From: a virus
IMG/VR virus record: IMGVR_UViG_3300046522_000297
Coordinates: 50,008-114,007 of that record
Reading direction: 5' to 3' (one strand)
Length of the DNA stretch: 64,000 nt
Part shown: one piece after another, positions 6,518-56,361 of the stretch
Layout of the letters: the number at the start of each line of letters is the position of its first letter
How positions within the stretch are numbered: position 1 is the stretch's first letter
Notes under the pieces: model-generated
Database searches by the model: none
The model's input: the letters and a program-made list of their open reading frames with translations, nothing else
Told to the model about the DNA's origin: nothing
Program-made: the position numbers and the translations under genes

Positions 6518-6587
6518 TGTCATGTAACTCAGCGGTAGAGTGCTAGAACCTTTCTAGAAGTCGCCAGTTCGATTCTGGTCACGGCCT
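6518..6587 (+). tRNA. Degenerate tRNA or tRNA-like leader (anticodon possibly CCT)
   Basis: D arm ACTC..GAGT and T arm GCCAG-TTCGATT-CTGGT are good. The acceptor TGTCATG/CACGGCC has two mismatches, no CCA is encoded, and the anticodon loop AACCTTT has A instead of T at position 33. Hairpin TCCCC-GAAA-GGGGA (6587-6600) follows. Possibly a decayed tRNA-Arg or a tRNA mimic in the leader of 6624. Confidence 0.5.
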
Positions 6588-11841: not shown

Positions 11842-12207
11842 ATGGATATTAGTATGTCGAAGCAAGAAAAAATCGCAGCAGCAAAAGCAACGAAGACCTC
11901 CAAGCCGACCGTGGCCCAATTCACGGGTTCGCTCGACACGACGGCGTTCGAAAAGGACTCTGTCTCCCCGGCGGATCGTTTCTGGAACATCAAGGGCACG
12001 AGCTACTATAGCCGTGACAAGGGCCTGCTGAAGGGTCTGCGTCGTGTCCTGAACCTGAAGGCAGGCGTGAACGAAGACGTGGCTGACGTCATCGAACACG
12101 ACAAGAACGACAAGGAAATCATCGTCGACAAAATCGCTGCTGTCCCGGCGAAAGACTGGCCGTTCAAGATCACCAAGGGCCCGGCTCATCCGCGCCTGAA
12201 CGGCTAA
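11842..12207 (+). CDS. Unknown protein, 121 aa
   Basis: Not recognised. The N-terminal 35 residues are Lys/Ala/Thr-rich and likely disordered; the rest is charged alpha/beta. ATG at 11842 or, four codons on, at 11854. Near the C-terminus it carries P-A-K-DWPF, a short motif also found near the end of the 16693 protein. C/G-ending codons suggest good expression. Confidence 0.72.
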   Translation: MDISMSKQEKIAAAKATKTSKPTVAQFTGSLDTTAFEKDSVSPADRFWNIKGTSYYSRDKGLLKGLRRVLNLKAGVNEDVADVIEHDKNDKEIIVDKIAAVPAKDWPFKITKGPAHPRLNG

Positions 12208-18648: not shown

Positions 18649-19563
18649 ATGAGTATCAAAGTCATCAACGTAGCAACCCATGCGGAGATTCCACTGCAAA
18701 TCTCCAAATTTCCCGGGGGCGAAGTCCACGTTAAGTTGGAGGAGAACGCCGTTCAGAATTTGGTAGAAGTAAACGTGTGGGCGTTCATCCAAAATTCGGA
18801 TGATATCATGGCTTTGCTTCTGGTAACCGACGCCATTCGCAAAGCGAGCCAGGCTACTACAGGGGTTAGTGAGACGAAGATACATCTCAGTCTCCCCTAT
18901 GTTCCATATGCTCGTCAAGACAGGGTGATGACTCCTGGTGAGTCCCTGTCGATCGAAGTATTCTGTAACCTGATAAACGCCCAGAATTATAGCAGCGTCT
19001 TCGTCTGGGATCCACACAGTGATGTAACGCCGGCTCTGCTGAAGCGTGTTGCAGTGATGCCGCAGGAGAAACTGTTGAGCTGTGATCTAGGCCTTATTTT
19101 GGGCGCTCCAGAATTCGACAAGTATCAGTCGTTGCCTCGTCATGAAGCCCGTGTCCAGGCCCGAAAGGACCAGCTCGAAAATATCGTCCTTGTCTCTCCG
19201 GACGCCGGCGCAAACAAGAAGATATTCAAGGTCGCCAAAGAGTGTGGCTTCAAACACGTCGTGCGTGCTGATAAAGAACGTAACGTCGAGACAGGTCAAA
19301 TCACAGGCACTGTCGTGTATAGCGATCACGTAGGTAGCAAGGATTTCCTGATTGTGGATGATATCTGTGATCGAGGGAGGACGTTCATTGAACTGGGGAA
19401 GGTGTTACGCCCGTTAACTAATGGCAAGATCATTCTTTATGTTACGCATGCCATTTTGCCAGATGGAGTAAAAGCACTTAAAGGATACGTAGACGAGATG
19501 TACTGTGCTCACTCATTTGGGAAATACCCCGAGGGATGTAATTTGATGGAGATGAGCGAATAA
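18649..19563 (+). CDS. prs: Ribose-phosphate pyrophosphokinase
   Basis: Makes PRPP from ribose 5-phosphate and ATP, the co-substrate of the NadV gene downstream. 304 aa, close to the bacterial length of about 310. Motifs: FPGGE (21-25), YVPYARQDR (84-92), WDPHSD (120-125), VSPDAGANKK (182-191) and the PRPP-binding loop IVDDICDRGRT (235-245). RBS AAAGGAAA. Pairing with nadV is a known NAD+ salvage arrangement in large phages. An HNH gene now separates the two. The sequence looks complete and active. Confidence 0.95.
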   Translation: MSIKVINVATHAEIPLQISKFPGGEVHVKLEENAVQNLVEVNVWAFIQNSDDIMALLLVTDAIRKASQATTGVSETKIHLSLPYVPYARQDRVMTPGESLSIEVFCNLINAQNYSSVFVWDPHSDVTPALLKRVAVMPQEKLLSCDLGLILGAPEFDKYQSLPRHEARVQARKDQLENIVLVSPDAGANKKIFKVAKECGFKHVVRADKERNVETGQITGTVVYSDHVGSKDFLIVDDICDRGRTFIELGKVLRPLTNGKIILYVTHAILPDGVKALKGYVDEMYCAHSFGKYPEGCNLMEMSE

Positions 19564-20130
19564 TTGGAAATTTGGAGAGACGTCCCGGGGTTCTCTGGCG
19601 AATTACAAGCTAGTGATTCCGGGAAATTAAGGACAATAGATAGAAGGGATGTTCTAGGTAGATTCAGGAAAGGTGTCGAGCTAAAGTTCGAGAAACATAG
19701 AACGGGATATCTTAGAGTAAAGATATCGCACAGAAGAGTTCAAAAGACATATTCTGTACATAGACTTATAGCCTTAACCTTTCTACCTAACCCTGAAAAT
19801 AAACCTGAGGTGAATCACAAAGATTCCAACCGTGCAAATAATGCGGTTTCTAATTTAGAGTGGTCCACGAAGGTTGAAAATATTGAACACGCTTATGAAC
19901 ACGGGGCTTTAGAAAACCCATACGGTGAGACTGCGCGGCATTTTAAGTATAGAGTTTTAGTAATAGATAAAAACGGAAATATAGTTGATGTGCTAATAGG
20001 TAAGACGGATATGGAGAACAAGGGGTATCAATCGTCTCTAGTGTACCACTGTTTAAACGGTAAACAAAAAACCCATAAGGGTTTTACTTTTAAAAGGGAA
20101 TATAATGGATCAAGCACTTCAAGCACGTAA
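19564..20130 (+). CDS. NUMOD4/HNH homing endonuclease between prs and nadV
   Basis: 188 aa from a TTG immediately after the prs stop. The N-terminal EIWRDVPGF.G..Q.SDSGKLR is a NUMOD4 DNA-binding motif; the HNH core is YSVHRLIALTFLPNP followed by VNHKDSNRANN and NLEWST. The C-terminal third is a further DNA-contact region. The last 26 bases overlap the nadV start. The AT-rich composition contrasts with nadV, a sign of insertion as a mobile gene. Confidence 0.88.
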   Translation: MEIWRDVPGFSGELQASDSGKLRTIDRRDVLGRFRKGVELKFEKHRTGYLRVKISHRRVQKTYSVHRLIALTFLPNPENKPEVNHKDSNRANNAVSNLEWSTKVENIEHAYEHGALENPYGETARHFKYRVLVIDKNGNIVDVLIGKTDMENKGYQSSLVYHCLNGKQKTHKGFTFKREYNGSSTSST

Positions 20131-21892
20131 CGAAACCTTCAAGCTGAAGCCCCAACTGGCGCGCGACAGCTACAAATTGGGTCACGATTCCCAATACCCA
20201 CTGGATACTCAGAAGGTCTACACCAACATGACCTTTCGTAGTGCCAAGCATTTCAAAGCACCGGCCGTCTGCGGATTTGACAACAAAATTACCTGGGTTG
20301 GTCTGCAAGGTACGATGATGGAATATCGTGCCATGTGGCAAGAACAGTTCTTCAGCCGACCCTGGGATGAAGTTGAAACGGAGTATGTTAACCGCACTAC
20401 TCCGTTCATGGGAAAAGCCCCTGATACCAGTCGGCTGAAAGCGTTACACGACCTGAGGTATCTGCCTTTACATGTTAAGCAGATCCCTGAGGGTAGTTAC
20501 CTGAACATCGGTGTTCCCGCCTTCACTATCGTCAATACCCAACCAAACGAAAATCTCTTCGGCTGGCTGACGAACGCGACGGAGACTTACCTCTCGAACG
20601 AAAGCTGGAAGCTGCCGACCATCGCTACGATCGCTACGGCGTACCGTCGTCTGTTCGACCATTACGCAGAACTGACTGGAGGTTCGATGGAGTTCGTGGA
20701 CTGGCAGGGGCATTGCTTCGCAGATAGAGGCCAAAGCGGTTATATGGACGCGGCCAAGAACTGCTCCGGCCACAGCGTTGCCTTCCTGGGTAGCGACTCG
20801 GTCTCGTCGGCAGACTGGATCACCTGGGCTTACTTCGCCGAAGAGAACTTCATCGCTGGCAGCGTCCCGGCTTCGGAACACGCTGTCTCCAGCCTGAACA
20901 TCGCTGTGATCAAGGCTGAGATGAAGAAGGAAATCGAGGCTATTCACGCCAATTTGAAGGAAGGTGAAGAAGCCAAAGACCTGACCGAAGACGAGTTGAT
21001 GGCCGAAGCAGAGTACCGCTTCTGCAAGCGCTACATCACCGAAGTCTATCCGACCGGCGTGGCATCATATGTTGCTGACACCTACAACTTCTGGCGTGTG
21101 ATCACCGAGATCGCTGCACGTCTGAAAGAAGAAATTCTGGCTCGTCAACCTGACGCCAACGGCCTGGCCAAGGTGGTGTTCCGTCCGGATAGTGGTGATC
21201 CTGTCAAGGTCCTGACGGGTTATGTTTGTGCCGAACTGCCGGCGGGAGCTACTCAAGAAGATTTTCGTAAACTCTCGTCTGACGTGGAAGCTGTAAAGCT
21301 TCACGATGGCACGTACTACGAAGTGGGCGGATGGTTAACCAGCTCTAACGGTGATCGCAGTGGCCTTATGTTGGGCCGGAAACTCTCTGAACCCGAAGTC
21401 AAGGGTGCGGTCGAATGCCTGTGGGACATCTTCGGCGGCACTGTGACCGACAAGGGCTTCAAGCAACTGCACGAACGTGTCAGCCTGATCTATGGTGATT
21501 CCATCACTCCGGATCGTGCGGATCAGATCATGCGTCGTCTGATGGCCAAGGGCTTCGCTTCGACCAACTGGGTTGCGGGCATTGGTTCGTACACCTACCA
21601 GTACATCACCCGTGACACTTTCGGTGCTGCACTGAAGGCAACGAACGCTGAAGTCGCTGGCGTTGCTCACGAAATCTACAAGGATCCGATCACCGATCCG
21701 GGTAAGAAGTCGGCCAAAGGCTTGCTGCGGGTAGAATACGAGAACGGCAACTTTGTTCTCTACGACCAGCAGACGCCGGAGCAGGAGAAGCAGGGTGTGC
21801 TGCAAGACCTGTTCCTGAACGGCAAGTTCCACAACCTCGTAAACTGGAAAACGGTCCGTGAACGTTTCGGTCTGGTGAAGTTGAATGTGTAA
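20105..21892 (+). CDS. nadV: Nicotinamide phosphoribosyltransferase
   Basis: Joins nicotinamide and PRPP to NMN, the key step of phage NAD+ salvage, useful when defences deplete NAD+. Motifs: DSYKLGH (21-27), FRPDSGDPV (359-367), YGDSI (463-467), and the WVAGIGS region near 490. At 595 aa it is about 100 longer than typical NAMPT/NadV; the extra length includes a Lys/Glu-rich helical segment at about residues 268-310. The ATG at 20105 follows AAAAGGGAATATA. C/G-ending codons indicate high expression. No NMN adenylyltransferase is seen in this window. Confidence 0.94.
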   Translation: MDQALQARNETFKLKPQLARDSYKLGHDSQYPLDTQKVYTNMTFRSAKHFKAPAVCGFDNKITWVGLQGTMMEYRAMWQEQFFSRPWDEVETEYVNRTTPFMGKAPDTSRLKALHDLRYLPLHVKQIPEGSYLNIGVPAFTIVNTQPNENLFGWLTNATETYLSNESWKLPTIATIATAYRRLFDHYAELTGGSMEFVDWQGHCFADRGQSGYMDAAKNCSGHSVAFLGSDSVSSADWITWAYFAEENFIAGSVPASEHAVSSLNIAVIKAEMKKEIEAIHANLKEGEEAKDLTEDELMAEAEYRFCKRYITEVYPTGVASYVADTYNFWRVITEIAARLKEEILARQPDANGLAKVVFRPDSGDPVKVLTGYVCAELPAGATQEDFRKLSSDVEAVKLHDGTYYEVGGWLTSSNGDRSGLMLGRKLSEPEVKGAVECLWDIFGGTVTDKGFKQLHERVSLIYGDSITPDRADQIMRRLMAKGFASTNWVAGIGSYTYQYITRDTFGAALKATNAEVAGVAHEIYKDPITDPGKKSAKGLLRVEYENGNFVLYDQQTPEQEKQGVLQDLFLNGKFHNLVNWKTVRERFGLVKLNV

Positions 21893-24442: not shown

Positions 24443-25040
24443 ACCAATTATGCTTATTGACATGGACGGTGTAGTTGCCGATTTCTACGGTCACTTCCTA
24501 TCCATCTGGCGTGAGAAATACCCGGATCGTGTTTACGTCAAACCCGAAGACGTAACGGCGTTCTATCTCGAAACCCTGTATCCAGAAGAGTACAAGCAAG
24601 ACATCCTGGACATTCTCCGTGCCCCAGGTTTCTTCGCAAACCTTCCACCTATGCCGGGTGCAATCGAAGCACTGAAAAAGATCCGAGAAGAAGATAAGTT
24701 CGATACCCTTCTCTGCTCGACCCCGGACTCGGACTCGGTCAACCACAACTGTTCCAGCGAAAAGATGCGCTGGGTCGAACGTCACCTCGGTAATGAATGG
24801 GTTAAGGACGTAATTCTGACCCACGACAAGACTCTGGTTTACGGGGACTTCTTGCTCGATGACAAGCCAAAAATCAACGGGCGCAGAAAACCATCCTGGA
24901 TACAGATCATGTTTCAGCATGCGTACAACAAGGACATTCACGGATTTCATATGAATGGCTGGGAATACTGGCCGAGTGTGGAGAAATATCTCCTCGACCT
25001 CGTTAAAGAAAACAACCATTTCGAACAGGTATACGAATGA
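24435..25040 (+). CDS. 5'(3')-deoxyribonucleotidase, HAD superfamily
   Basis: Removes phosphate from deoxynucleoside monophosphates. 201 aa, as in the NT5C family. Catalytic motif DMDGVVADF at residues 9-17 (Asp9 nucleophile, Asp11 acid/base); the later LLCSTPDSDS region is motif II and LDDKP is the acidic motif. With dUTPase and ThyX-like proteins it points to control of thymidine pools. Overlaps the next gene by ATGA. Confidence 0.85.
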   Translation: MTKPIMLIDMDGVVADFYGHFLSIWREKYPDRVYVKPEDVTAFYLETLYPEEYKQDILDILRAPGFFANLPPMPGAIEALKKIREEDKFDTLLCSTPDSDSVNHNCSSEKMRWVERHLGNEWVKDVILTHDKTLVYGDFLLDDKPKINGRRKPSWIQIMFQHAYNKDIHGFHMNGWEYWPSVEKYLLDLVKENNHFEQVYE

Positions 25041-25771
25041 CCAAAGATTTGCCCAAAGCTATCAGCGACCTCTTCACCCCTAATGCAGAAATTCTCAAGG
25101 TCCCACCGGCCGAGAACGAGCCTAAGGCGGGTGGAGGAAACCTGATCAAAGTTCTGTTTCTGGATATCGACGGTGTCCTGAACAGTCATAAAACCCAAGT
25201 CATCTGGGGTAAGCTTCCGTTCCCCGGATATGATGGTGACAAAGGTTTCGTGGACGATGCATACACCTCGGATCCCGCTGCGGCAGCTCTGGTAGATCGT
25301 CTTTGTGATGCTACCGGTGCTTATATCGTACTGAGCTCGTCGTGGCGTATCGGTTGTAACCTCGAACAGGTCCGTACGATGCTGGTAACGCTGGGTATAG
25401 AATCCCCAATCATCGGTAAAACCTCGCAGCTCAACGGCAAGCGTGGTGACCAGATTGCTCACTGGATTAACGAGTTCAATACACATGAAGGTAAGGCTCG
25501 TCTGATTCAGCAAGGTCATCTGGATACGGAGGAGCTTGACCTTCCGTTCGACGACAAGACTGTGATCCAAACCTACGCCATTGTCGATGACAATGCTGAT
25601 ATGTTGGAATCGCAGAAGCATCACTTCGTTCAAACCACGTTCATGGACGGGCTCACTTGTGCCCTGACACTCGAACTCGGTAAGATCCTGAGTGATGACC
25701 CAACGTTCCATCTGAATGCTCTTACTGGCAAACCTTCCGTCGGTCAAGAGTGGGAAGATACTTTCAAATGA
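25037..25771 (+). CDS. HAD-like phosphatase, 244 aa
   Basis: Second HAD protein in a row. FLDIDGVLNS (41-50) with Asp43/Asp45, motif II IVLSSSWR, and YAIVDDNADM for metal binding. The SSSWR pattern and later HFVQTTFMDGLT are typical of the HAD proteins linked to RNA repair (Swiss-army-knife type) and of many phage proteins. Substrate unknown. The N-terminal 35 residues are an extra, probably flexible segment. Confidence 0.78.
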   Translation: MTKDLPKAISDLFTPNAEILKVPPAENEPKAGGGNLIKVLFLDIDGVLNSHKTQVIWGKLPFPGYDGDKGFVDDAYTSDPAAAALVDRLCDATGAYIVLSSSWRIGCNLEQVRTMLVTLGIESPIIGKTSQLNGKRGDQIAHWINEFNTHEGKARLIQQGHLDTEELDLPFDDKTVIQTYAIVDDNADMLESQKHHFVQTTFMDGLTCALTLELGKILSDDPTFHLNALTGKPSVGQEWEDTFK

Positions 25772-25862: not shown

Positions 25863-26123
25863 ATGTCTAAGAACACTAACGAAATCAAACTCACTGCCCG
25901 TAAACTTGCAATCCTGTCGAAGAACGTCGCCCGCCACCGTAAGGCAGCCGACATGACGAAGGCAGAATTTGCTCGTAATACCACGGTGAGCCGTGACACT
26001 ATTCGTCGTATTGAGACTCTCCCTGAGGGTTACATTCCGTCGATCGACACGGTTAAAGCACTGGCGGATTTGGCAGGTGCATCTGTTCAAGAAATCCTGA
26101 CTACCAAACTTGTCTTTCAATAA
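25863..26123 (+). CDS. HTH XRE-type transcription regulator, 86 aa
   Basis: One Cro/CI-like helix-turn-helix domain: helix 2 MTKAEFARNTTVS, recognition helix RDTIRRIETL, then TVKALADLAGASVQEIL. It is the right length for a DNA-binding repressor without a ligand domain. Its operator is not identified; the 1.4-kb RNA and the TGTCCA array are nearby candidates. Confidence 0.85.
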   Translation: MSKNTNEIKLTARKLAILSKNVARHRKAADMTKAEFARNTTVSRDTIRRIETLPEGYIPSIDTVKALADLAGASVQEILTTKLVFQ

Positions 26124-26135
26124 ATAACGAAGGCA

Positions 26136-26176
26136 TGGTATAAGGGAATTGTAAGGGAGAGTCAATCTCTCTTACG
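26136..26176 (+). promoter_or_regulatory. Promoter TGGTATAAG with 5' hairpin leader
   Basis: Motif 26136-26144. GTAAGGGAGAG (26151-26161) pairs with CTCTCTTAC (26167-26175) around TCAAT. Drives 26211. Confidence 0.78.
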
Positions 26177-26210: not shown

Positions 26211-26396
26211 ATGGCATCTACCCTCAATGTCACCGAGTATCTCGAAGAAGGCTTCGCTCTGATCGAAGATACCGAGGGCACGTATCTGGCGTCTAAACAT
26301 ACTGATGCAATCGTTGATATTCCCAAAGTAATTCCCCCAGTCATTCCTACTCGTAACTGCATCTTGGTGCAGTCTCGTGAAGCGATGCTGACCTAA
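26211..26396 (+). CDS. Unknown protein, 61 aa
   Basis: Acidic first half, Pro/Val/Ile-rich second half (IPKVIPPVIPT). RBS AAGGAAG. Not recognised. Last protein gene before the giant RNA region. Confidence 0.7.
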   Translation: MASTLNVTEYLEEGFALIEDTEGTYLASKHTDAIVDIPKVIPPVIPTRNCILVQSREAMLT

Positions 26397-26407
26397 TCTT
26401 TAGGTCC

Positions 26408-26425
26408 GAGGAGCTTCGGCTCCTC
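26408..26425 (+). other. UUCG hairpin after 26211 gene
   Basis: GAGGAGC-TTCG-GCTCCTC, perfect 7-bp stem but without a T-run. Could be a terminator-like end, a processing site, or the first stem of the giant RNA. Confidence 0.7.
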
Positions 26426-26444
26426 TCCACGATCAAGTATAGTA

Positions 26445-27805
26445 GTCTAATAAGACAGGAAAGATGTAACAGCTTTCTAAATTCTTTCGGCTGCGCCGAT
26501 AGGCCTGGAGGTTCACGTCAACGACGTGACGTCCGTCGACCAGGTCCTCTGCAGCTGAAGAGCTCATCTCCTTGCAGCTCACCTCAACGAGTTGATCGTT
26601 TCACCCAGCCTGTGATATACTGCAGGCTTCACAACTTAATGTATGTTAGGCCTTGAGACGAAAGTCTCTTGAAGTCTAAGGTGGATGCCACATTCACTGT
26701 GTACTTCTCCTCCTACGGGGAGAAAAACCTGGCGGCCTCCGGCCACCGGTGTGATCTCGAACCCGGGTACTGCTTAGCTCCTTTAATAAAGAAGTTAAAC
26801 CAGGTACCTGGAGACCGGATGTGAGATCACAAGATTAAGTTATTTTCCGTCCTTAGTATTAAGCAAGTAACACCTTGCTACAGAAGGTAACCTTCTGGTA
26901 CTAGCTTGGGCTTTATCGCTACGCTCAAGCCCAGAGATGAATAGACTCCCTGGGATCCGCCGGCGCCGATCGCCGACGTATCTACGTCTCTTATGTGTAA
27001 GGACACTTTCGAACTTTGGTACAACAAGGGTATTACGCCTTTGTATCACGAGGCTACCTCGTGGGAGTACACTGGAATCAATGATTAATCCTGCGCTCAA
27101 GCATTGAGAAGTCAATGCCCGCTTGGATCATCGAGCAAAGTTCAATACCGGGTATGGGCACCGCCTCACTAAGAAAAGGGCCTTTCGACTTTAGTATTAA
27201 AGATAGAGAACCTATCTTCTACGATGCAACATTGTAGGTTTAGAGTTCTCATCACCTCTGGTGACCCCACCTCAGCTACATCCCTCTCTATGCTGTGGGC
27301 GCTCCGCTCAGGATGTATCAGAGGAGTGGTAACCAGAGGAGATGAGTAAGAAAAAGGACCGAGGTACTACTACTAATAAGATTTAATTAGTGGGCCCTGG
27401 GAGCACCTGGTACGTAATCGAGTAAAGTCAAAGGACGTTAGCATAAAAGTAAATGCACGGGTCGTCGGGCCCGACGTAAATCTCCCGGATCTCAATGACG
27501 AAACGTTGAGACGTCCTCCGTATATTATTATTGCCACAGCGTATGTTCCTTTGTGAATAGGCTAGCCAAGCAGAGAGAGGCGCATATATCCTCTGCAGGT
27601 GTAGACGCTGCCGTCATTTCGGTCTCCTCCCATAGATATAAAATCTGCCAATTAAAGTGAGAGTAGGTTCTCACCCAAACGACAACTGTCGGCGGTGGAT
27701 GGAAATTCTATGGAGCGTTGATACACCAGACAACTCGGAAAGACGGGTAACGTAGCTGTCACTACGCCGGTGCTCCCGATGTGGACACATCGGTTGAGCC
27801 TCTCG
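26445..27805 (+). ncRNA. Candidate giant structured RNA, about 1.4 kb
   Basis: No plausible gene on either strand. Perfect or near-perfect hairpins occur throughout: 26513-26529, 26607-26628, GAGAC-GAAA-GTCTC (26655-26668), 26705-26724, CAGAAGG-TAA-CCTTCTG (26881-26897), 26904-26930, 26961-26975, 27047-27063, 27101-27118, 27219-27237. Longer-range stems pair 26750-26758 with 26823-26831, and 27248-27262 with 27332-27346, the latter enclosing 27277-27283/27311-27317. A TATAGT box at 26438 could start it; a terminator at 27806 ends it. By size and setting it recalls GOLLD and ROOL phage RNAs but is longer; I cannot confirm a family. Confidence 0.72.
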
Positions 27806-27837
27806 ATCCCTACCGTAAAACGTGGGGATTTTTTTTA
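27806..27837 (+). terminator. Terminator of the giant RNA
   Basis: ATCCCTAC.G / CGTGGGGAT around TAAAA (27806-27829), then eight Ts and AGCTTAAT. Closely resembles the 6452 terminator. Confidence 0.88.
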
Positions 27838-27849
27838 GCTTAATCAAGG

Positions 27850-28510
27850 TCGTCCGAGCAACTGTCCAGAATTTTTGGACACTGTCCATTTTCTCAGGAC
27901 ATCTGTCCACCTCTATACTATCAACAAACAAAGCATATATAGAAATTAATGTCCAATTGTCCAAAACGTCAAAAATAAAATTGGACACTCTAAGTCTTTG
28001 ATTTTAAAAAGAAAAAGGGCAAAGTGTCCAGTTTTTTGAGATTTTCTGAAAAACATACACCAACCTTCGTGGAGAGAGTTGGGGAGAAATCAGTAGAGCC
28101 TACCCTACCCTCAACAAATCTGCTTTTATGAATTCCCCTATTCCCCCTCTATTCACTGCCTCTCTATATATATAATATATAATATATAAATAATAAATAT
28201 ATATATATATAGGTAATATGACGCAGTTTTTTGACTCGTAGAGGTTGATAGGGCTTCTCCCATTTTTCCAAAAATTCTGCGATATTTTTTATAAAGGTGG
28301 GTGTATGTTTTTCAAAAAATCGAAAAAAACTGGACACTTGGCCTATAAGGCTAGTAGACACAAGCGAAAAGGGTGTCCAGTTTTATTTTCCTATTTTTGG
28401 ACACTCTGGACACCTTCTCTAAATGTCTTTATTTTAAAAGGGTTTTAAGTGTCCAGTGCGCACAGTGAAATTGGACACCTGTCCAAAAAACTGGACACTT
28501 GTCCTGATTT
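27850..28510. repeat. TGTCCA/TGGACA array in AT-rich gap, possible origin or partition site
   Basis: 16 exact copies in about 640 bases, in two clusters. Forward TGTCCA starts at 27863, 27883, 27904, 27950, 27958, 28025, 28374, 28450 and 28480. Reverse TGGACA starts at 27876, 27982, 28331, 28398, 28407, 28472 and 28492. AGGACA (27896) and TGTCCT (28500) are near-copies. Full palindrome TTGGACA-CC-TGTCCAA at 28471-28486. Many copies have an A/T flank (AACTGGACACTT). No convincing gene. Typical of binding sites for a replication initiator, partition protein or repressor. Confidence 0.8.
28164..28212. repeat. AT-only tract between the two repeat clusters
   Basis: About 48 bases almost entirely TA/ATA repeats, dividing the TGTCCA clusters. 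A candidate DNA-unwinding element if this is an origin. Confidence 0.6.
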
Positions 28511-28549: not shown

Positions 28550-28561
28550 TTTTGGTATAAG
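28550..28561 (+). promoter_or_regulatory. Promoter TTTTGGTATAAG
   Basis: Motif present, but no convincing leader hairpin downstream. Drives 28618. Confidence 0.7.
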
Positions 28562-28617
28562 TAAGATACCTATAACTTGATTCCCCCTTTACAAACCAAA
28601 TTTAGAGGTAATTTATC

Positions 28618-37898: not shown

Positions 37899-39761
37899 TT
37901 ATATACCTATCGCCGTTCTAGATATCCTTAGATTCGCAACATCAGTGGTACCAGAAGTGGTCGCATCGTTGGAGGATGCTGCGGGTATCAGTCCTACTCT
38001 AAGATGCGCTACATTGGCGGAGGCTGCTTTATGAGCAACTAAAAATTCCCCCCAAGAGGTAGGTATATTAGTAGTTCCATAAAATGAATTCGATATAAAG
38101 GTACCTGAGCTATCATATTCCTGAACTATAACTGCAAATGACGTGGCAGTATTCTTCTTAATAGATAGCTTTACAAATAATCGAGAACCCACAGTTACGG
38201 GTATAAAGCTATTAATAGTATGCTGCCGTATATTAGACGTCGTATCATCATTTATCGTAACAGCTTGTGGTGCACCAAGGGGCTTCGTAGCGGCTACCGT
38301 GGTAGTTACGGCAGGATCTACGAAATATTTGAGTTTATTAGTAGTACTATCTATATCTAGCCATGGATTTGGATTCAGATTTACGTATCCACCCGAATTC
38401 ACAAAATTCCCATAAACTGAGGCATCTGCAAACCCGGGGCAGTATAAATAGTCCTGTCCGTTTTCATCTGGATTTATACCTTTAACATGGTTCACTCCCT
38501 GGATCTTAACTCCCAATGAAGCATTTTTACTACGGTTACCGGTTATTGTGCAACCAGACGCCCCTAATGGAATAGTACCATCGGTTCTACCAGTGCCGGA
38601 TTCTATAGTAGCTATGTGAGCTCCTATGTTTTCCCCGTAATTATTTATACTTTCGCAATTGATCCCGTTGAGAATTCTAAATGCATTGGTAGTAATGTTC
38701 TTTACGATGTTATCGTATATACGCACTCCAATCGAAGGATGCCCTATTCCGCTCTCCTGTGTTCTACCGTAGTCTGTTACGAATACCCCAGAAACTACTT
38801 TACCGCCGCCATTACATACGTTATGACCTATGTTTATTCTCTCACCTTGAACTTCTATGAAATCAGTAAAAGTACCTGGCCCCGTATAAGAGGATTCTAC
38901 GACGCATAGGTTATCGGATATAATCCCGTCGAAACTTCCGTCAACGCTGTGGTGACAGTCATACATATTTTTAGTATGATTACCTCTTATTAGGAAATGT
39001 GCACATCCACGTTTTATATCAGCCAACGTTCTGATGGATTCGGCGGTATTATCATTGATATTTATATATCTAAAATTAACGGTACTATACCCATTACCTG
39101 CCGATGAATAATCCCAAGTTTGTTCAAATCTCACTGCATCCATAGATACTACCCCGGATACCCCTCCTAGAGATCTCTTATCTGGATTCGTTATAAATTT
39201 ACAACGAGTAACACTAATATTAGAACCTGAAGCAGAAACGTCTGTAGCTATGAACCTTATAAAATGATCCTGGGCATCTTGCATGGAGCAGTTAGTTACA
39301 GTGAACCCGTTTAAGGTTTCACCAGACCCCAGTTCAATAGAAATGATTGCATTATATTGATATCCGGGGTTGGCGACTCTTCTGCCATCGAACTTCAGAT
39401 TTCTTATATGAAAATTTAACAAAGATCCTGCGCCTGCTGCCTTGGATATACCCGCTTGAGATGTAGACACTTGGGTTTGTAATAGGGTACCAGTACCGTC
39501 TAATGTCACATTACTTTTAGGAGTAATCTGGCTAAACGAATAGTTTCCGTCAGGGATAATAACTAATCCTCCTCCTGCCAGATTAGAAGTATTTATAGCA
39601 GCTTGAATAGCAGCGGTATCATCTGTTACCCCATCTCCTTTAGCCCCAAAGTCCTTGACATTGATAATATCTCCAAACTTGTCCTTAAGGGTTCTCTCTA
39701 CGGAATTTGTAAGGTCGGATTTGTGTTTAATTAGTTCAGTTGAAAGTTTAGTTAATGACAT
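37899..39761 (-). CDS. Tailspike, pectate-lyase-like beta-helix, 620 aa
   Basis: The N-terminal anchor (MSLTKLSTELIKHKSDLTNSV) and INVKDFGAKGDGVTDDTAAIQAAI precede a long right-handed beta-helix, as in capsule-degrading tailspikes. I start at the ATG 39761 (MSLTK, shared with its neighbours) because the ATG at 39788 lies inside the preceding gene. The C-terminal 150 residues resemble a jelly-roll carbohydrate-binding domain. Probably a receptor or polysaccharide depolymerase; the catalytic pair is not identified. Confidence 0.85.
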   Translation of the reverse strand: MSLTKLSTELIKHKSDLTNSVERTLKDKFGDIINVKDFGAKGDGVTDDTAAIQAAINTSNLAGGGLVIIPDGNYSFSQITPKSNVTLDGTGTLLQTQVSTSQAGISKAAGAGSLLNFHIRNLKFDGRRVANPGYQYNAIISIELGSGETLNGFTVTNCSMQDAQDHFIRFIATDVSASGSNISVTRCKFITNPDKRSLGGVSGVVSMDAVRFEQTWDYSSAGNGYSTVNFRYININDNTAESIRTLADIKRGCAHFLIRGNHTKNMYDCHHSVDGSFDGIISDNLCVVESSYTGPGTFTDFIEVQGERINIGHNVCNGGGKVVSGVFVTDYGRTQESGIGHPSIGVRIYDNIVKNITTNAFRILNGINCESINNYGENIGAHIATIESGTGRTDGTIPLGASGCTITGNRSKNASLGVKIQGVNHVKGINPDENGQDYLYCPGFADASVYGNFVNSGGYVNLNPNPWLDIDSTTNKLKYFVDPAVTTTVAATKPLGAPQAVTINDDTTSNIRQHTINSFIPVTVGSRLFVKLSIKKNTATSFAVIVQEYDSSGTFISNSFYGTTNIPTSWGEFLVAHKAASANVAHLRVGLIPAASSNDATTSGTTDVANLRISRTAIGI

Positions 39762-39765
39762 AGTT

Positions 39766-41247
39766 TTAAAGTATTTCACAAGATACATTGAACGGTCCCC
39801 CAGAAGCAGGCACCGCGTTCACCACCGTTATGGTAAATCCACCAGTAGTCTTCGTAGCTACGAAGGGGATGGCTGCTGCCGCAGTAGTATTTCTAGGGAA
39901 GATATTGATAGCAGAGTAAAATCCCATGACGTTACCGTTGGTAACCACCGTGGACCCTCCTGCCGCAAGCCCTGCCAGATTAACAGCAAGTATCAATGCA
40001 TCGGGACTCAGCTTACTAGTTCTAACGGTGACTCCCGAGCCGGAAGCGCTGAAGGGTCCGAAACTGTTACCGACAAGATTACTATCCGTCAATGAGCAAT
40101 CGTTGCCCGCAGTAAAGTTGACCCCGTAATCATGGTTATTAATAGCGGTGACCCCAGATACCCTGACGTTATCCGTATTAAAGGAGTAAACTCCAGAACC
40201 AGTAACAGCACCTTCTAGTCTATTAGAACCCTTGACTTGTACTTTGGTAGCTCCGTCACTGATGTTTATGCAATTATTGTATGCACCGTTTACAGTGATG
40301 TTAACTAATTCAAAATTAGTAGTATTTCCACCAACTGAAACACCATTGTGAGTTGATCCTGAGGTAGCGGCCTGCCCTGCGTTCAAAACGGTGATGTTAA
40401 CACCACGACTGTACGAAGCAGGTTTCCCAGTATGACCAAAGTTAACACCGTTGTTAAATTGGTTGTTTTTACTTACGATGTTACAAGCTGTGGAATAGGT
40501 ACTATCCAGAACAACACTAGACGCTCCACAGTTTTCAGCATGGATACCATCTATAATGTTGCCCACCCCTCCTGCACCGCTTATGGAAACCGCAGACCAG
40601 CCATTAGATCCATCACCTAAGGCGTTGATTCTTCTTATAGAGCAGTTAAGGCTGGCACCGTCGAAGTATATACCTTCCCTCTGCCACACACTTAAAAAGA
40701 TATCGTGAGCGTGACACCTAACTCCGTCTACGAAAACTACACAGCCTTGGCTGGCTACGACCCCGTTACTCGATGTGTATTTATTGTTGCCTAGTTTTCT
40801 AACGTTGATTCTACAATCCGTAGGCTTTACGAATTTAATGAGACCTTGTCTATCACCAATTTGGTTAGCTGAATTTCCGTCGATCTCTCCTGAGCCCGAA
40901 ATCATTATGTTAGAATTCCCATTTGTAGTATCCACATTAACGAACATATACGAATCGCTCGACGTATTAGGTTTCCGTAGACATTTTCCGTCTATAACTA
41001 GGACAACGTTAGAGGGGATACTGACAGTATCTATAACGTAGGTATACCCCGCCGGGAATGCGATTTTTGAAAATGCGGAAACTGCGGATTGAATAGCAGC
41101 GGTATCATCAGTAACACCATCCCCCTTAGCCCCAAAATCCCTTACGCTTACAAACTCGTCGAGCTTATCCTTAGAGGTTCTCTCAGAAGAACCTATCGGA
41201 AAGGCTTTATATCTTATTAATTCTGCCGAAATTTTTGTAGTTGACAT
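39766..41247 (-). CDS. Tailspike, pectate-lyase-like beta-helix, 493 aa
   Basis: Starts MSTTKISAELIRYKAFPIGSS, then VSVRDFGAKGDGVTDDTAAIQ and a parallel beta-helix with repeating short strands. The anchor is homologous to that of the 37899 spike. No separate chaperone domain. It ends 4 bases before the next spike's start, so the two are made from one message. Specificity unknown. Confidence 0.85.
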   Translation of the reverse strand: MSTTKISAELIRYKAFPIGSSERTSKDKLDEFVSVRDFGAKGDGVTDDTAAIQSAVSAFSKIAFPAGYTYVIDTVSIPSNVVLVIDGKCLRKPNTSSDSYMFVNVDTTNGNSNIMISGSGEIDGNSANQIGDRQGLIKFVKPTDCRINVRKLGNNKYTSSNGVVASQGCVVFVDGVRCHAHDIFLSVWQREGIYFDGASLNCSIRRINALGDGSNGWSAVSISGAGGVGNIIDGIHAENCGASSVVLDSTYSTACNIVSKNNQFNNGVNFGHTGKPASYSRGVNITVLNAGQAATSGSTHNGVSVGGNTTNFELVNITVNGAYNNCINISDGATKVQVKGSNRLEGAVTGSGVYSFNTDNVRVSGVTAINNHDYGVNFTAGNDCSLTDSNLVGNSFGPFSASGSGVTVRTSKLSPDALILAVNLAGLAAGGSTVVTNGNVMGFYSAINIFPRNTTAAAAIPFVATKTTGGFTITVVNAVPASGGPFNVSCEIL

Positions 41248-41250
41248 AGT

Positions 41251-41303
41251 TATCTTTACGAAAAAGAGGCCTCGAAGGGCCTCTATTATTTTAGGTGAAC
41301 TTA
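41251..41303. repeat. Intergenic repeat, copy 1
   Basis: 53-base segment that matches 43042-43094 at 51 positions. It contains a terminator hairpin and lies before tailspike genes on the minus strand. Confidence 0.85.
41261..41284 (-). terminator. Terminator between tailspike genes
   Basis: Minus strand AGAGGCC-CTTCGA-GGCCTCT then TTTTTC, within the 53-base repeat. Confidence 0.85.
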
Positions 41304-43034
41304 CAGCCCAGTTATAACTTCGGAAGCTGGATTTGACCCAATGTTATTCATATACTCTACCAAGACCGTTGCAGTAGTAGTCCCATACGCACTAGGTATA
41401 TTTAACTGAAGGTCTACCGTATTGTCACCGTTACGGATCATAGTAGCCGTAATAGTCCCCAGCGCGCTACCGCCAGTGTTGGATACCGCCGTAGCATCCC
41501 CGATCTTTGATATAGTCTGTGACGCCGTAGCTTCTTTATAGCATGCAAACTGATAAGTTTGAGCTCCTACGAAGCCGATATCCGGGTTATAACTATTAAG
41601 TAACATCACCGTAATTTTACCGAAACAATTAGAGCCGTATGAGCTATTGTCAATTCTAATAACAGACTGAGCACTCCCCCCCGTGAGAGATTTAGTGTAT
41701 ACGAAGTTTTTGATATTACTCACCCCATCATATCGGCTAGTGCCATAACGGTTGATGTATCTCGTTCCACTTTCATCACGGATAGTAAGCAGAGAGTTTG
41801 CATCAGAAACATACCACCAATTAGTACCTCCGATTTCTACAGGCTTTCTAATATTATCTAATATAACGGTAGCCCCCGTAGAAGCTGAGAGTTGTCCATA
41901 GGTACCTCCAGCATTACCAGGGTTAGCGATTCCTAGCCAGGTATTGGTGAAGGTAACCCTTGTCCCGGCATCTGAGAACTGGTAAGGGAAATACGACCCA
42001 GGTGCGGACCCTACCTTGTAAATTATAAGTGCTCCACCGACTACGGTAACTTCGGCCCCGTTAACGGCTTGGACAATACGGCTGAAGGACTCAGCACCGC
42101 ATCCCGTCATTGAAATGACTGAGTTATCAAAATAATAGCAACGGTCAACACTATCTGCAGAACACGAGGTCATGGAACTATAGTTCAGGTTAGTGAAAGT
42201 GTACCCCGTTCCTCCAGCACTGCTCTTACCGTCGACTGCGACGTTTTTAAATCCATTGCTAGTGCCCGTATTAATATTGAAATGATCTTTGCTAAAACGT
42301 GACCGAATTTTAACCCACTCAATCTGCCACATATCGAAGCCCTTTATGAAGAACTTTGAGTAGTTACAGAACAGACTTTCGAACGACGAATAGCAAACCC
42401 GCTGCCCGTGGAAAACCCCAACGCTACCATCAGACGGTAGATCGAAACTACAGTTAATTATATTGAAATCGGTCAAATAACTTTCGTTAGGACAAATTAA
42501 GTTAAAAACTACAGGTTGATCCCATGTTAAGGTTTGTACAACCCCGTTGGAATCCGTGTAGGTACGGGTTACCACATTAGTAGTTAAAGAGGTTTTCTTA
42601 AATGTGGTCTTTCTTTTTTCACCATAGACGTTCACATCGGAGGTAATATTAATTGGAGTATCTATTAGAAACGTACCTACTGCATATATATTCTTGTAAG
42701 CGTTTATAGCGCTTTGAATAGCTGAGCTACTAACGGTTGTCCCAGTGGGGTCTGCGCCAAACCATTCCACGTTTACAGCGCCGCTAAATACTCTCTTCCA
42801 TCTTTTGCCGTTACCGGAAACGATAGTAGTGCCGCCATTGTCCACAGACGTAGTATCAGAATCGTTCCTAACAAAATTTCCGGCAATACCTGACTTCGTG
42901 ATATACACGGAAGTCTGGGCCCCTTCGTACAGACGTAGAGCTACATAGTCGTTTAGACGTAGGGTGTTTAGGGAACCTTCCACGGTGTCAGTACCGTGGG
43001 TGATCATACTGCTTTTGGCTTTTGTTAATGACAT
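41301..43034 (-). CDS. Tailspike, beta-helix, 577 aa
   Basis: N-terminal module MSLTKAKSSMITHGTDTVEG, then FVRNDSDTTSVDNGGTTIVSGNGKRWKR.F.GAVNVEWFGA, a particle-binding domain also found in the 43102 and 45043 proteins. A pectate-lyase-like repeat region follows (about residues 115-400), then a beta-sandwich tail. Probably an alternative host polysaccharide specificity. Confidence 0.85.
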   Translation of the reverse strand: MSLTKAKSSMITHGTDTVEGSLNTLRLNDYVALRLYEGAQTSVYITKSGIAGNFVRNDSDTTSVDNGGTTIVSGNGKRWKRVFSGAVNVEWFGADPTGTTVSSSAIQSAINAYKNIYAVGTFLIDTPINITSDVNVYGEKRKTTFKKTSLTTNVVTRTYTDSNGVVQTLTWDQPVVFNLICPNESYLTDFNIINCSFDLPSDGSVGVFHGQRVCYSSFESLFCNYSKFFIKGFDMWQIEWVKIRSRFSKDHFNINTGTSNGFKNVAVDGKSSAGGTGYTFTNLNYSSMTSCSADSVDRCYYFDNSVISMTGCGAESFSRIVQAVNGAEVTVVGGALIIYKVGSAPGSYFPYQFSDAGTRVTFTNTWLGIANPGNAGGTYGQLSASTGATVILDNIRKPVEIGGTNWWYVSDANSLLTIRDESGTRYINRYGTSRYDGVSNIKNFVYTKSLTGGSAQSVIRIDNSSYGSNCFGKITVMLLNSYNPDIGFVGAQTYQFACYKEATASQTISKIGDATAVSNTGGSALGTITATMIRNGDNTVDLQLNIPSAYGTTTATVLVEYMNNIGSNPASEVITGL

Positions 43035-43041
43035 ATTATAT

Positions 43042-43094
43042 TATCTTTACGAAAAAGAGGCCTCGAAGGGCCTCTAGTATTTTAGATGAACTTA
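43042..43094. repeat. Intergenic repeat, copy 2
   Basis: Second copy of the 53-base segment at 41251 (two mismatches). Confidence 0.85.
43052..43075 (-). terminator. Terminator between tailspike genes
   Basis: AGAGGCC/GGCCTCT hairpin with TTTTTC on the minus strand, same as at 41261. Confidence 0.85.
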
Positions 43095-43101
43095 TCTTAT
43101 A

Positions 43102-44997
43102 TTAATTAACTTCACCGCTGGAAGAACGAGTCACGATTACGCCCAAGCTTCCACTAGCAAGATCTATAGCGGCAGCAGTCGGGTTGTAGAAATATACAGT
43201 AACAACGCCTGAAGCGGTGACTTGCCCCCACATCTGAATACCCTGTAAGGGATTTGGGAACATCACCTGCACCGGCTCACCAACTAAAGCGTTATTCACG
43301 TTTAGAGTGGTGCTAGTGCTAGCTCCAGCAGCCAAGCTAGGCGGATCATAAGTCTTACTTGCCAGACGATTTGTAGGGTACAGGAATCCACTGTAGTTGG
43401 TGGTGATCGTGCCGCCATTCACCTTAAACAGGTTCTGCTGGATGAAGTTGTTGCTTTCTGCCGAGAGGTTCGTTCCGGTGATGCAGCGGGTACGTGTTAC
43501 ATTGGTTTGGGCGTAATGCACATTATTTGTGATACGAGAATACGTAAAACCACAGTTACGTATAAGGATATCATCGTCATTTACGATGGCCGAATTCACG
43601 GTCAGCGGGGTGCCGAAGCGATTGCCGTCGATAATGCATCCCGAGAACTGACAATTGGTAAAGCCCCCAGTGCTCTCGACGCATAGACTATATTCAGTCA
43701 GCAGGCCTGGCTGAGTCACAAACACATTGCCGGTGAACATGAAGCTGAAAACTTCGCTCGACGACGGTGTCACGAGGTTGACGTGTTTGGCCTTGACCGG
43801 CTGGCCGACCGTGCCTACCGCAAGGACGCAACTGAACGTGTTGTCCTTGATCTTAAGGCCCGGACAGTTTAGCGCCTTGAGGCCGTTGTTGACAACGATG
43901 GTGCGCGCTTGGTCGATATCGCTCCGAAGCCAGTTCTCGTTGATGATCGTGCCATAGCACTGTTTCAGATAGATCTGAGCCTGTCCGTTAGTGTTCTTGA
44001 CCTTGGTACGGCTGATCATCAGATTTTCATCAAAGCTACAGATAATATTAGCCATGCCGAGATCAGTAGCGGGGTAGGCTGCGTCCGTCGTGCCGCTGGC
44101 ACCGTTGCCGACGATGTCGCATTGCTCGATCAGCGTCCCCACCGTATCGTAGGTGAAGATGCCCGCCTTGTCACATAGATAAGCTACGCAGTTGACGATT
44201 TTGTTGGTTTGTGTCTGGTCAAGATAGAAGCCGTGGCCGCAACTGTGGACAATGACATCACGGAAGACGTTCTGCAAACCCTGGACGCAGATGACACCGG
44301 CAGCAGCTATGTTCGCGTCTCCGTTGTGCCCACGGTCCTCAATGCCCCGGAAATTGCGAATCCACACACGCTCCACTACCATGCCCTGTGGTGCCCAGGC
44401 CCCTGTATCGAATGCTGGGTCGATGAAGTTAAGCGCATGGCCATTGCCAGCAGCGCCAGTCAAACCATTTCCATTAAACTGAAGATCTTGAATCAGGCTA
44501 TTTTGTGTGCCATCTGGATAGGCTGTCTTGATAAGCGACCCCCCAATGACCTTGGAATTGAGAATCGACTGCGTCATGCCATCCCCAATCATACCGCCGG
44601 GCTGCGGAACGACCAAAGTACGGCTAATGTTGTAGCTTCCCGTAGGCACGTAGACCCGCTTGCTGGTCGCAAGCGCGGCCTCAAATGCGCTCGTGTCATC
44701 CGTCCCCGTCCCTAGAGCGCCAAACCACTTGACGTTTACGGGCCCGGAAAAGTCTCGTTTCCATCGCTTACCGTTCAATGCCACTATAGTAGTGCCTCCG
44801 TTATCAACAGAGGTAGTATCCGAATCATCCCTTACGAAATATCCGGAAATCCCAGCCTTAGTGACGTACACAGTAGTCTGAATACCCGAATATACTCTAA
44901 GGGTCGCATAGTCGGTTAAACGTATGGCATTTAAAACACCTTCCACGGTATCGCTACCGTGGGAGATCATATAACTTTTTTCTCTTGTTAGTGACAT
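43102..44997 (-). CDS. Tailspike, beta-helix, 631 aa, with GC-rich centre
   Basis: N-terminal module MSLTREKSYMISHGSDTVEG and FVRDDSDTTSVDNGGTTIV.LNGKRWKR.FSGPVNVKWFGA as in its neighbours. DDTSAFEAALA then starts the beta-helix. The coding sequence for roughly residues 90-480 is clearly richer in G+C than the flanking module and neighbours, a sign of domain exchange. Specificity unknown. Confidence 0.85.
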   Translation of the reverse strand: MSLTREKSYMISHGSDTVEGVLNAIRLTDYATLRVYSGIQTTVYVTKAGISGYFVRDDSDTTSVDNGGTTIVALNGKRWKRDFSGPVNVKWFGALGTGTDDTSAFEAALATSKRVYVPTGSYNISRTLVVPQPGGMIGDGMTQSILNSKVIGGSLIKTAYPDGTQNSLIQDLQFNGNGLTGAAGNGHALNFIDPAFDTGAWAPQGMVVERVWIRNFRGIEDRGHNGDANIAAAGVICVQGLQNVFRDVIVHSCGHGFYLDQTQTNKIVNCVAYLCDKAGIFTYDTVGTLIEQCDIVGNGASGTTDAAYPATDLGMANIICSFDENLMISRTKVKNTNGQAQIYLKQCYGTIINENWLRSDIDQARTIVVNNGLKALNCPGLKIKDNTFSCVLAVGTVGQPVKAKHVNLVTPSSSEVFSFMFTGNVFVTQPGLLTEYSLCVESTGGFTNCQFSGCIIDGNRFGTPLTVNSAIVNDDDILIRNCGFTYSRITNNVHYAQTNVTRTRCITGTNLSAESNNFIQQNLFKVNGGTITTNYSGFLYPTNRLASKTYDPPSLAAGASTSTTLNVNNALVGEPVQVMFPNPLQGIQMWGQVTASGVVTVYFYNPTAAAIDLASGSLGVIVTRSSSGEVN

Positions 44998-45011
44998 AAC
45001 ATAGGTTTCAT

Positions 45012-45033
45012 GAAAAAGGCCCGAAGACCCTAT
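45012..45033 (-). terminator. Terminator between fibre and tailspike
   Basis: Minus strand AGGGTC-TTCG-GGCCTT then TTTC, a UUCG-looped hairpin. Confidence 0.7.
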
Positions 45034-45042
45034 TTAAATCGA

Positions 45043-55963: not shown

Positions 55964-56361
55964 GGTGCGTCTCCCTCTACGTAAATTCCTCCAAGCATAC
56001 TAACCCAGAAGACTTTCATGTTGGCATAATAATCACTTTCACGGTTAGCTTCTGCTGAAGCGTCCGTATAGTAATCACTTTTCCTTTTACTTGAGATATC
56101 AAATTCTCTAATCAGTGCTGCCATTTGGTGAACATTCTCAATAGCAGCACCGTTCTCATAACTGGCTGAATCATCAGCTCGTATGTAGGTCATGCGGTGA
56201 AGCTCCGAGTAATCCAGCACGTCTATGACGTTGCTGAAGTCTGGAGGTTCCACGCTTCCGGTATCGTCTTTCAGATACTTGTATAGGTCATTGTAGAACT
56301 CCGCCAATTTGTCATTGGCGGTTTCTGCTTGTCCCAGTGCGCTGTTGGAATCTAACGGCAT
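55960..56361 (-). CDS. Unknown baseplate-region protein, 133 aa
   Basis: Acidic, helical, no family recognised. Coupled by overlaps to the sigma factor before it and the gp25-like gene after it. Confidence 0.68.
   Translation of the reverse strand: MPLDSNSALGQAETANDKLAEFYNDLYKYLKDDTGSVEPPDFSNVIDVLDYSELHRMTYIRADDSASYENGAAIENVHQMAALIREFDISSKRKSDYYTDASAEANRESDYYANMKVFWVSMLGGIYVEGDAP

What the first reader, a model, noticed from the sequence alone, without database searches (positions are those of the whole stretch)
26397..27840. A giant, probably new structured RNA of about 1.4 kb
Seen: no usable gene, at least ten perfect or near-perfect hairpins with tetraloops, two long-range stems (26750-26758/26823-26831; 27248-27262/27332-27346), a terminator at the end and a TATAGT box at 26438. 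Known: the largest phage RNAs of this kind, such as GOLLD and ROOL, are about 550-950 nt, often lie near tRNAs, and some assemble into symmetric multimers. Inference: this is a new, larger class or a very diverged relative, possibly tied to the repeat array directly after it.
Basis: partly seen in the sequence, partly recalled or inferred. Interest (0 to 1): 0.88.

Follow-up and report, generated by a model that had tools for sequence, protein, structure and literature searches.

The report
Giant modular phage RNA, new family
An uncultured phage carries a 1.4-kb structured non-coding RNA built from four look-alike folded domains; cousins of this RNA in related phages carry a transfer RNA or a string of Ro60-binding "Y RNA" modules in the same slot, which suggests a scaffold RNA with exchangeable cargo that belongs to no family in the Rfam library.

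Summary
Window 26397-27840 has no convincing gene and folds far better than shuffles (z = -12.5). It has no Rfam match, and the DNA has no match in 50,697 phage records.

Relatives show a conserved unit: HTH gene, ~60-aa 'EGFALIED' protein, giant RNA (1.4 kb here, up to 2.3 kb elsewhere), terminator. Structure is backed by covariation in sister and distant phages. The RNA is built from a repeated domain 'M': helix-GUAU-hairpin A-hairpin B-...-(C/U)GAG-helix'. Four copies (M1, MX, M2, M3) keep their order between the window and diverged relatives. M also stands alone as a 5' leader, including elsewhere in this phage's genome.

Between MX and M2 lies an exchangeable slot: 7 nt here, ~270 nt with a tRNA-Met in the sister phage, and 6-9 Y-RNA-like Ro60-binding modules (some with permuted tRNA mimics) in others. 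Every phage with Y modules encodes Ro60 nearby, mostly as the next gene; the window type has neither. RNA-repair genes (HAD_SAK_2; Pnkp in relatives) are neighbours.

Most likely a trans-acting scaffold RNA that works like GOLLD/ROOL but is not a member. TATAGT at 26438 is M1's GUAU motif, not a promoter. Expression, multimerisation and function are untested.

The parts
25863..26123 (+). HTH_3/HTH_31 regulator, 86 aa; an HTH gene also precedes the small protein and RNA in the relatives
   Evidence: Pfam 5.8e-9; HTH gene in L083 and by reading the loci
26117..26144 (+). Phage-type promoter TCAATAA...TGGTATAAG, likely driving small ORF + RNA (inferred)
   Evidence: 17 GGTATAA[GT] sites on + strand of window, none on - strand
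26211..26396 (+). 61-aa 'EGFALIED' protein, no known family, directly precedes the RNA in the relatives of the same unit
   Evidence: no Pfam hit
26397..27840 (+). Giant structured non-coding RNA (body)
   Evidence: z = -12.5; covariation with L003; no Rfam hit
26429..26599 (+). Domain M1: P0 ACGATCAA | GUAU ... AACGAG | UUGAUCGU
   Evidence: 4th best R1 hit at 26429-26484
26633..26841 (+). Domain MX: P0 AACUUAAU | GUAU ... CACAAG | AUUAAGUU
   Evidence: same place in order as relatives' TTTGAA|GTAT...AATGTG|TTCAA domain
26842..26848 (+). Slot (linker) between MX and M2: 7 nt here; tRNA-Met insertion of ~270 nt in sister L003; 6-9 Y-RNA modules in L080-L087
26849..27004 (+). Domain M2: P0 GUCCUUA | GUAU ... 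UAUGUG | UAAGGAC
27187..27429 (+). Domain M3: P0 GACUUUA | GUAU ... AUCGAG | UAAAGUC
   Evidence: best R1 hit in the window at 27185-27244
27430..27812 (+). 3' tail with further stems; part (about 27440-27527) absent from sister
27813..27837 (+). Terminator-like hairpin followed by T run
   Evidence: sequence; a hairpin-T7 at the same place in L003
25037..25771 (+). HAD_SAK_2 protein (HAD domain of RNA-repair proteins), neighbour
   Evidence: Pfam 2.3e-21

Best explanation
A trans-acting giant scaffold RNA of a new family. It is transcribed from a phage promoter together with a small-protein ORF and ends at its own terminator. Four related domains (M1, MX, M2, M3), each closed by a helix with the motif GUAU on one side and (C/U)GAG-like on the other, form a 5' half and a 3' half. 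Between the halves is a slot that presents exchangeable RNA cargo: nothing in this phage, a tRNA in its sister, an array of Ro60-binding Y-RNA/tRNA-mimic modules in other phages. The cargo form probably gathers several Ro60 copies on one RNA for phage-directed RNA quality control or repair. The window form is the cargo-free version of the same scaffold. Shown: structured RNA, covariation, repeated domain, shared order, slot contents, link with the Ro60 gene. Inferred: transcription, scaffold action in trans, Ro60 binding, a role in RNA repair, any multimer.
For: Fold z -12.5. Covariation in the sister and in relatives' 5' and 3' parts. The unconstrained alignment fold finds the P0 helices of all four M domains in the relatives. 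G-U to A-C cells 54:6 on the + strand in the 5' part, as expected for an RNA of that strand. Signature S7-GUAU-N-G[AU]G-S7' occurs 3 times on the + strand of the 64-kb window, all inside this RNA; 0.0027 expected per 1444 nt. Same M1-MX-slot-M2-M3 order in L083/L087. tRNA-Met in the L003 slot. Y modules: YrlA E 7e-7 to 2e-8 and 2.2e-7; 6-8 per RNA by strict count, none elsewhere in those loci. Ro60 gene in every record with Y modules and in none of the window type; full-length match to D. radiodurans Rsr, 4.5e-111. RNA-repair neighbours HAD_SAK_2 and Pnkp.
Against: No transcript data. The window phage itself has neither Y modules nor Ro60, so the Ro60 role cannot be its function. M domains also occur as 5' leaders of a 116-aa-type ORF, which points to cis regulation. 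The homology of M domains between the window and the Y-bearing group rests on a short signature, domain order and context; the model R1 finds the window copies only weakly (12.7 and 9.8 bits, E 2.6 and 8.8). The signature was worked out by looking at these same RNAs, so its rarity in the window is not an independent test; the leader copies are the independent check.
Confidence: 0.5

Rival explanations
1. Cis-acting regulatory RNA. M is a riboswitch-like or put-like (HK022-type antitermination) element, and the giant RNA is an over-grown leader or trailer that controls transcription or translation of neighbouring genes.
For: Tandem M pairs sit in ~300-nt leaders straight after a GGTATAAG promoter in G030, G029 and G005, and an M leader precedes a homologous ORF in this phage's own genome.
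Against: The giant RNA ends in its own terminator, and a further promoter lies at 28554-28562 before the next genes. Four domains plus exchangeable tRNA or Y cargo are not needed for a leader.
Confidence: 0.22
2. Precursor RNA. The giant transcript is cut into small RNAs (Y RNAs, tRNAs), and the M domains are processing or stability elements.
For: A complete tRNA-Met lies in the L003 slot; compact Y modules are each closed by their own stem.
Against: The window RNA holds no such cargo, yet the rest of the RNA is more conserved than neighbouring genes. Permuted tRNA mimics have capped acceptor stems and cannot become tRNAs as they stand.
Confidence: 0.12
3. A very diverged member of GOLLD or ROOL.
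For: Size class, phage home, 5' part / linker / 3' part layout, and tRNA in the linker as described for some GOLLD RNAs (PMC12286853).
Against: No GOLLD/ROOL covariance-model match even at E <= 5 with permissive filters, nor in relatives.
Confidence: 0.06
4. DNA-level structure (replication origin, packaging or recombination site) rather than RNA.
For: Adjacent AT-rich TGTCCA/TGGACA repeat region at 27865-28500.
Against: G-U pairs far exceed A-C cells on one strand; fold z-scores are higher on the + strand in several windows; own terminator; Y/tRNA modules in the + sense.
Confidence: 0.03

Closest known systems
GOLLD RNA (Rfam; cryo-EM 14-mer nanocage, PMC12286853)
   Same: Giant phage RNA, two halves separated by a variable linker that can hold a tRNA
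   Different: No covariance-model match; longer (1.4-2.3 kb against >800 nt); built from repeated M domains; linker can hold Y-RNA arrays; fixed HTH + small-protein partner genes
ROOL RNA
   Same: Large ornate phage RNA with a variable linker
   Different: No model match; different domain plan
Bacterial Y RNA, YrlA (RF02553) with Ro60/Rsr
   Same: In relatives (not in the window) the slot holds modules with the Ro-binding stem and capped permuted tRNA mimic, next to a full-length Ro60 gene
   Different: Known Y RNAs, as far as I know, are single small RNAs of ~100 nt; here 6-9 modules are strung inside a 1.9-2.3-kb RNA. Scores lie below the Rfam gathering cut-off. Named Ro60 phages BearBQ, Comrade and LinStu show only short gaps by Ro60
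HK022 put RNA / phage leader RNAs (from own knowledge)
   Same: M leaders lie directly behind promoters
   Different: No sequence tie tested; giant RNA ends in a terminator

Membership tests
GOLLD (Rfam) | Match to the Rfam covariance model | tested here: not met
   no match in region at E <= 5; relatives
GOLLD (Rfam) | 5' and 3' parts separated by a variable linker that may hold a tRNA | tested here: met
   tRNA-Met in the MX-M2 slot of sister L003, 7-nt slot in window
GOLLD (Rfam) | Close to a tRNA island | tested here: inconclusive
   11 tRNAs in the window, nearest ~11.5 kb upstream
GOLLD (Rfam) | Assembles into a multimeric nanocage | not testable with these tools
   needs in vitro RNA and mass photometry/cryo-EM
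ROOL, OLE, HEARO (Rfam) | Match to the Rfam covariance model | tested here: not met
Y RNA / YrlA (window RNA) | Ro-binding stem CCG...GGUUAUC with closing stem | tested here: not met
   none in 26397-27840
Y RNA / YrlA (window RNA) | Ro60 gene nearby | tested here: not met
   no TROVE match in G000 or the 185-kb sister record
Y RNA / YrlA (relatives' slot) | Ro-binding stem, tRNA mimic, adjacent Ro60 | tested here: met
   bit scores 44-45 are below the gathering score 69
Leader riboswitch / put-like element (giant RNA) | Lies in the 5' leader of, and is co-transcribed with, the gene it controls | tested here: inconclusive
   terminator at 27813-27837 separates it from the next gene; separate M leaders do precede an ORF

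The most novel reading that the evidence does not exclude
A new class of modular giant phage RNA made of repeated M domains that assembles, alone or as a multimer, into a scaffold or cage carrying exchangeable cargo, and in Ro60-bearing phages displays 6-9 Ro60-binding Y modules and tRNA mimics on one RNA: a phage-encoded polyvalent RNA-repair/quality-control particle.
Probability: 0.3. Interest if true: 0.95.

Novelty: new variant of a known kind. Interest (0 to 1): 0.87.

Why it matters
GOLLD and ROOL cages have no known function and their linkers are of unknown purpose (PMC12286853). This family gives a natural series in which the same scaffold carries an empty slot, a tRNA, or an array of modules whose protein partner (Ro60) is known and encoded close by, mostly next door. 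That makes the 'cargo scaffold' idea directly testable with purified parts, and adds a candidate multi-site Y RNA and a reusable RNA domain that also serves as a leader.

Tried and rejected
Rfam scans of the window and region: nothing but tRNAs and chance. blastn of the RNA against phages and against 30 related records: only the close sister clearly, plus one marginal match at E 9e-4. Exact 16-17-mers of the RNA over IMG/VR: sister only; the five other hits are chance. Small-protein scan of genome contigs: none, so no host link. Mixed M1/M2/M3 and leader a/b alignments were misregistered and not used for models. R1 has only hairpin B as structure and is a weak detector. Ro60 phages BearBQ, Comrade and LinStu have no giant gap by Ro60. 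Literature: no paper found that describes a giant RNA with a Y array; the two Y-RNA reviews wanted are not held.

Full report
What is there. Window 26397-27840 is the 3' part of an intergenic unit on the + strand: HTH gene (25863-26123), 61-aa ORF (26211-26396), then 1.44 kb without a gene, ending in a hairpin and T8 (27813-27837). It folds at -523 kcal/mol against -436 +/- 7 for shuffles, z = -12.5. Rfam gives nothing for it, nor does a blastn search of 50,697 phage records. The window is the last 64 kb of a 114-kb IMG/VR virus record. Its virion genes are distant relatives (about 30-40% aa) of Salmonella phage Arash and Vibrio phages D69, D181 and D148.

Sister phage. L002/L003 carry the same unit. 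Aligned blocks of the RNA are 90-91% identical while neighbouring genes are 77-82%. Using only the window's own predicted structure, 14 pairs show compensatory change against 4.45 expected (maximum 12 in 500 controls), and 56 pairs are broken against 77 expected, minimum 63. Whole hairpins are replaced by different but paired sequence. L003 has about 270 nt inserted between 'ATTAAGTT...' and 'CGTCCTTA', with a complete tRNA-Met (12072-12147); the window has only 7 nt between these two domains.

Distant relatives. A baseplate alignment and neighbour genes led to syntenic loci in other phages, and the small protein led to more. All have HTH gene, EGFALIED protein, then a long non-coding stretch. 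From the small-ORF stop to the terminator it is 1902-2275 nt in L080-L087; it is about 1.2 kb in G013 and about 0.9 kb in G019 (read). In these the RNA sequence has diverged so far that blastn barely sees it.

Covariation. For the 5' part (A9), 35 of 110 pairs have changes on both sides against 19.2 in shuffles, and 95.4% of cells pair against 33-45% when slid. For the 3' part (A8), it is 31 of 96 against 14.9. No shuffle of 500 reached either. G-U to A-C cells are 54:6 on the + strand in A9, as expected for an RNA read from that strand.

The repeated domain. The unconstrained alignment fold closes four domains, each by a helix P0 directly followed by GUAU and, on the other side, directly preceded by (C/U)G(A/U)G; inside lie hairpin A and hairpin B (loop often GUAAC). 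The window has the same: ACGATCAA|GTAT...AACGAG|TTGATCGT, AACTTAAT|GTAT...CACAAG|ATTAAGTT, GTCCTTA|GTAT...TATGTG|TAAGGAC, GACTTTA|GTAT...ATCGAG|TAAAGTC. A strict form with 7-nt P0 occurs three times on the + strand of the 64 kb, all here; 0.0027 is expected per 1444 random nt. I arrived at this signature by looking at these RNAs, so I sought independent checks. Model R1, built without the window and without the P0 3' strand, has its best window hit at M3 and its fourth at M1, although weakly. In other records it gave weak hits (19-27 bits) that turned out, in three phages, to be tandem domains with perfect 8-11-bp P0 closures in leaders. The signature then found an 11-bp version in this phage's own genome (L012 15669-15807, that is G000:34168-34306), upstream of a homologue of the same leader ORF. 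The four orthologous leaders covary: 17 of 26 predicted pairs have changes on both sides.

The slot. In L080-L087 the region between MX and M2 holds an array of modules GAGCCG...GGUUAUC...GCUC whose closing stem covaries between modules. Strict counting gives 8, 7, 6, 8 and 8 modules in L080, L081, L082, L083 and L087 and none elsewhere in those loci; reading by eye gives up to nine. Rfam recognises YrlA, the bacterial Y RNA, at E 7e-7 (whole-locus scan) to 2e-8 (region scan), though below its gathering score; the alignment covers the Ro-binding stem and a permuted tRNA mimic with capped acceptor. G008 gives 2.2e-7 and 1.1e-4. Every record with these modules encodes TROVE/Ro60: directly after the RNA in the L080-L088 group, within about 2 kb in G008/G020. 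G000, G001, G002, G013 and G019 have neither. The L083 protein matches D. radiodurans Rsr over its full length, 4.5e-111. Ro60 genes are common in named phages (357 records); the three I looked at have no giant RNA beside them.

Neighbours. The gene at 25037-25771 is HAD_SAK_2, an RNA-repair HAD family, and a DHH protein lies downstream. In relatives the M leader follows Pnkp, an RNA kinase-phosphatase-ligase; Pnkp homologues are also in G013 and G019 but not found in the parts of G000 held.

How it probably works. I favour a trans-acting scaffold RNA with exchangeable cargo, close in plan to GOLLD, whose linker can hold tRNAs and lies inside a cage (PMC12286853). The window form is the empty one. 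Inference, not shown: transcription, Ro60 binding, multimers, RNA repair. The main rival is cis regulation, because M domains also sit in leaders.

Membership. It is not GOLLD, ROOL, OLE or HEARO by model. The window RNA is not a Y RNA. The relatives' slot modules meet the Y-RNA features that I could test.

Noticed in passing
L080 5692-6853, L081 5729-6576, L083 5723-6673, L087 5700-6629: Arrays of 6-9 Y-RNA-like modules, several with permuted tRNA mimics, inside the relatives' giant RNA, directly before a Ro60 gene.
   Followed up: yes
L012 15669-15807 (G000:34168-34306); L111 2227-2505; L112 2429-2732; L113 2642-2939: M domains as single or tandem 5' leaders of a ~116-aa-type ORF of unknown family; in L113 the gene before is Pnkp.
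   Followed up: partly
window 27865-28500: AT-rich region rich in TGTCCA/TGGACA (9 and 7 copies), partly kept in L003; possible operator or origin array.
   Followed up: partly
window + strand, e.g. 25793, 26137, 28554, 28897: Phage promoter type TCAATAA...TTGGTATAAG, 17 GGTATAA[GT] sites on + and none on - strand; a sigma-factor-like gene (Arash gp10 relative) lies at 56361-57086.
   Followed up: partly
L013 6314-6389 (G000:43313-43388): ARAGORN calls a tRNA with CUA anticodon ('Pyl'), a possible amber suppressor among ~21 tRNAs of this phage.
   Followed up: no
window 6518-6587: Rfam tRNA (38.5 bits) that ARAGORN misses.
   Followed up: no
window 37899-48519: Row of five large tail-spike/depolymerase-like genes.
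   Followed up: no
window 18649-21892: PRPP synthetase-like and nicotinamide phosphoribosyltransferase genes: NAD+ salvage pair.
   Followed up: no
L114 11058-11195 (G021): M-like signature shortly after a diverged Ro60 gene (32% identity) in a further phage lineage.
   Followed up: no
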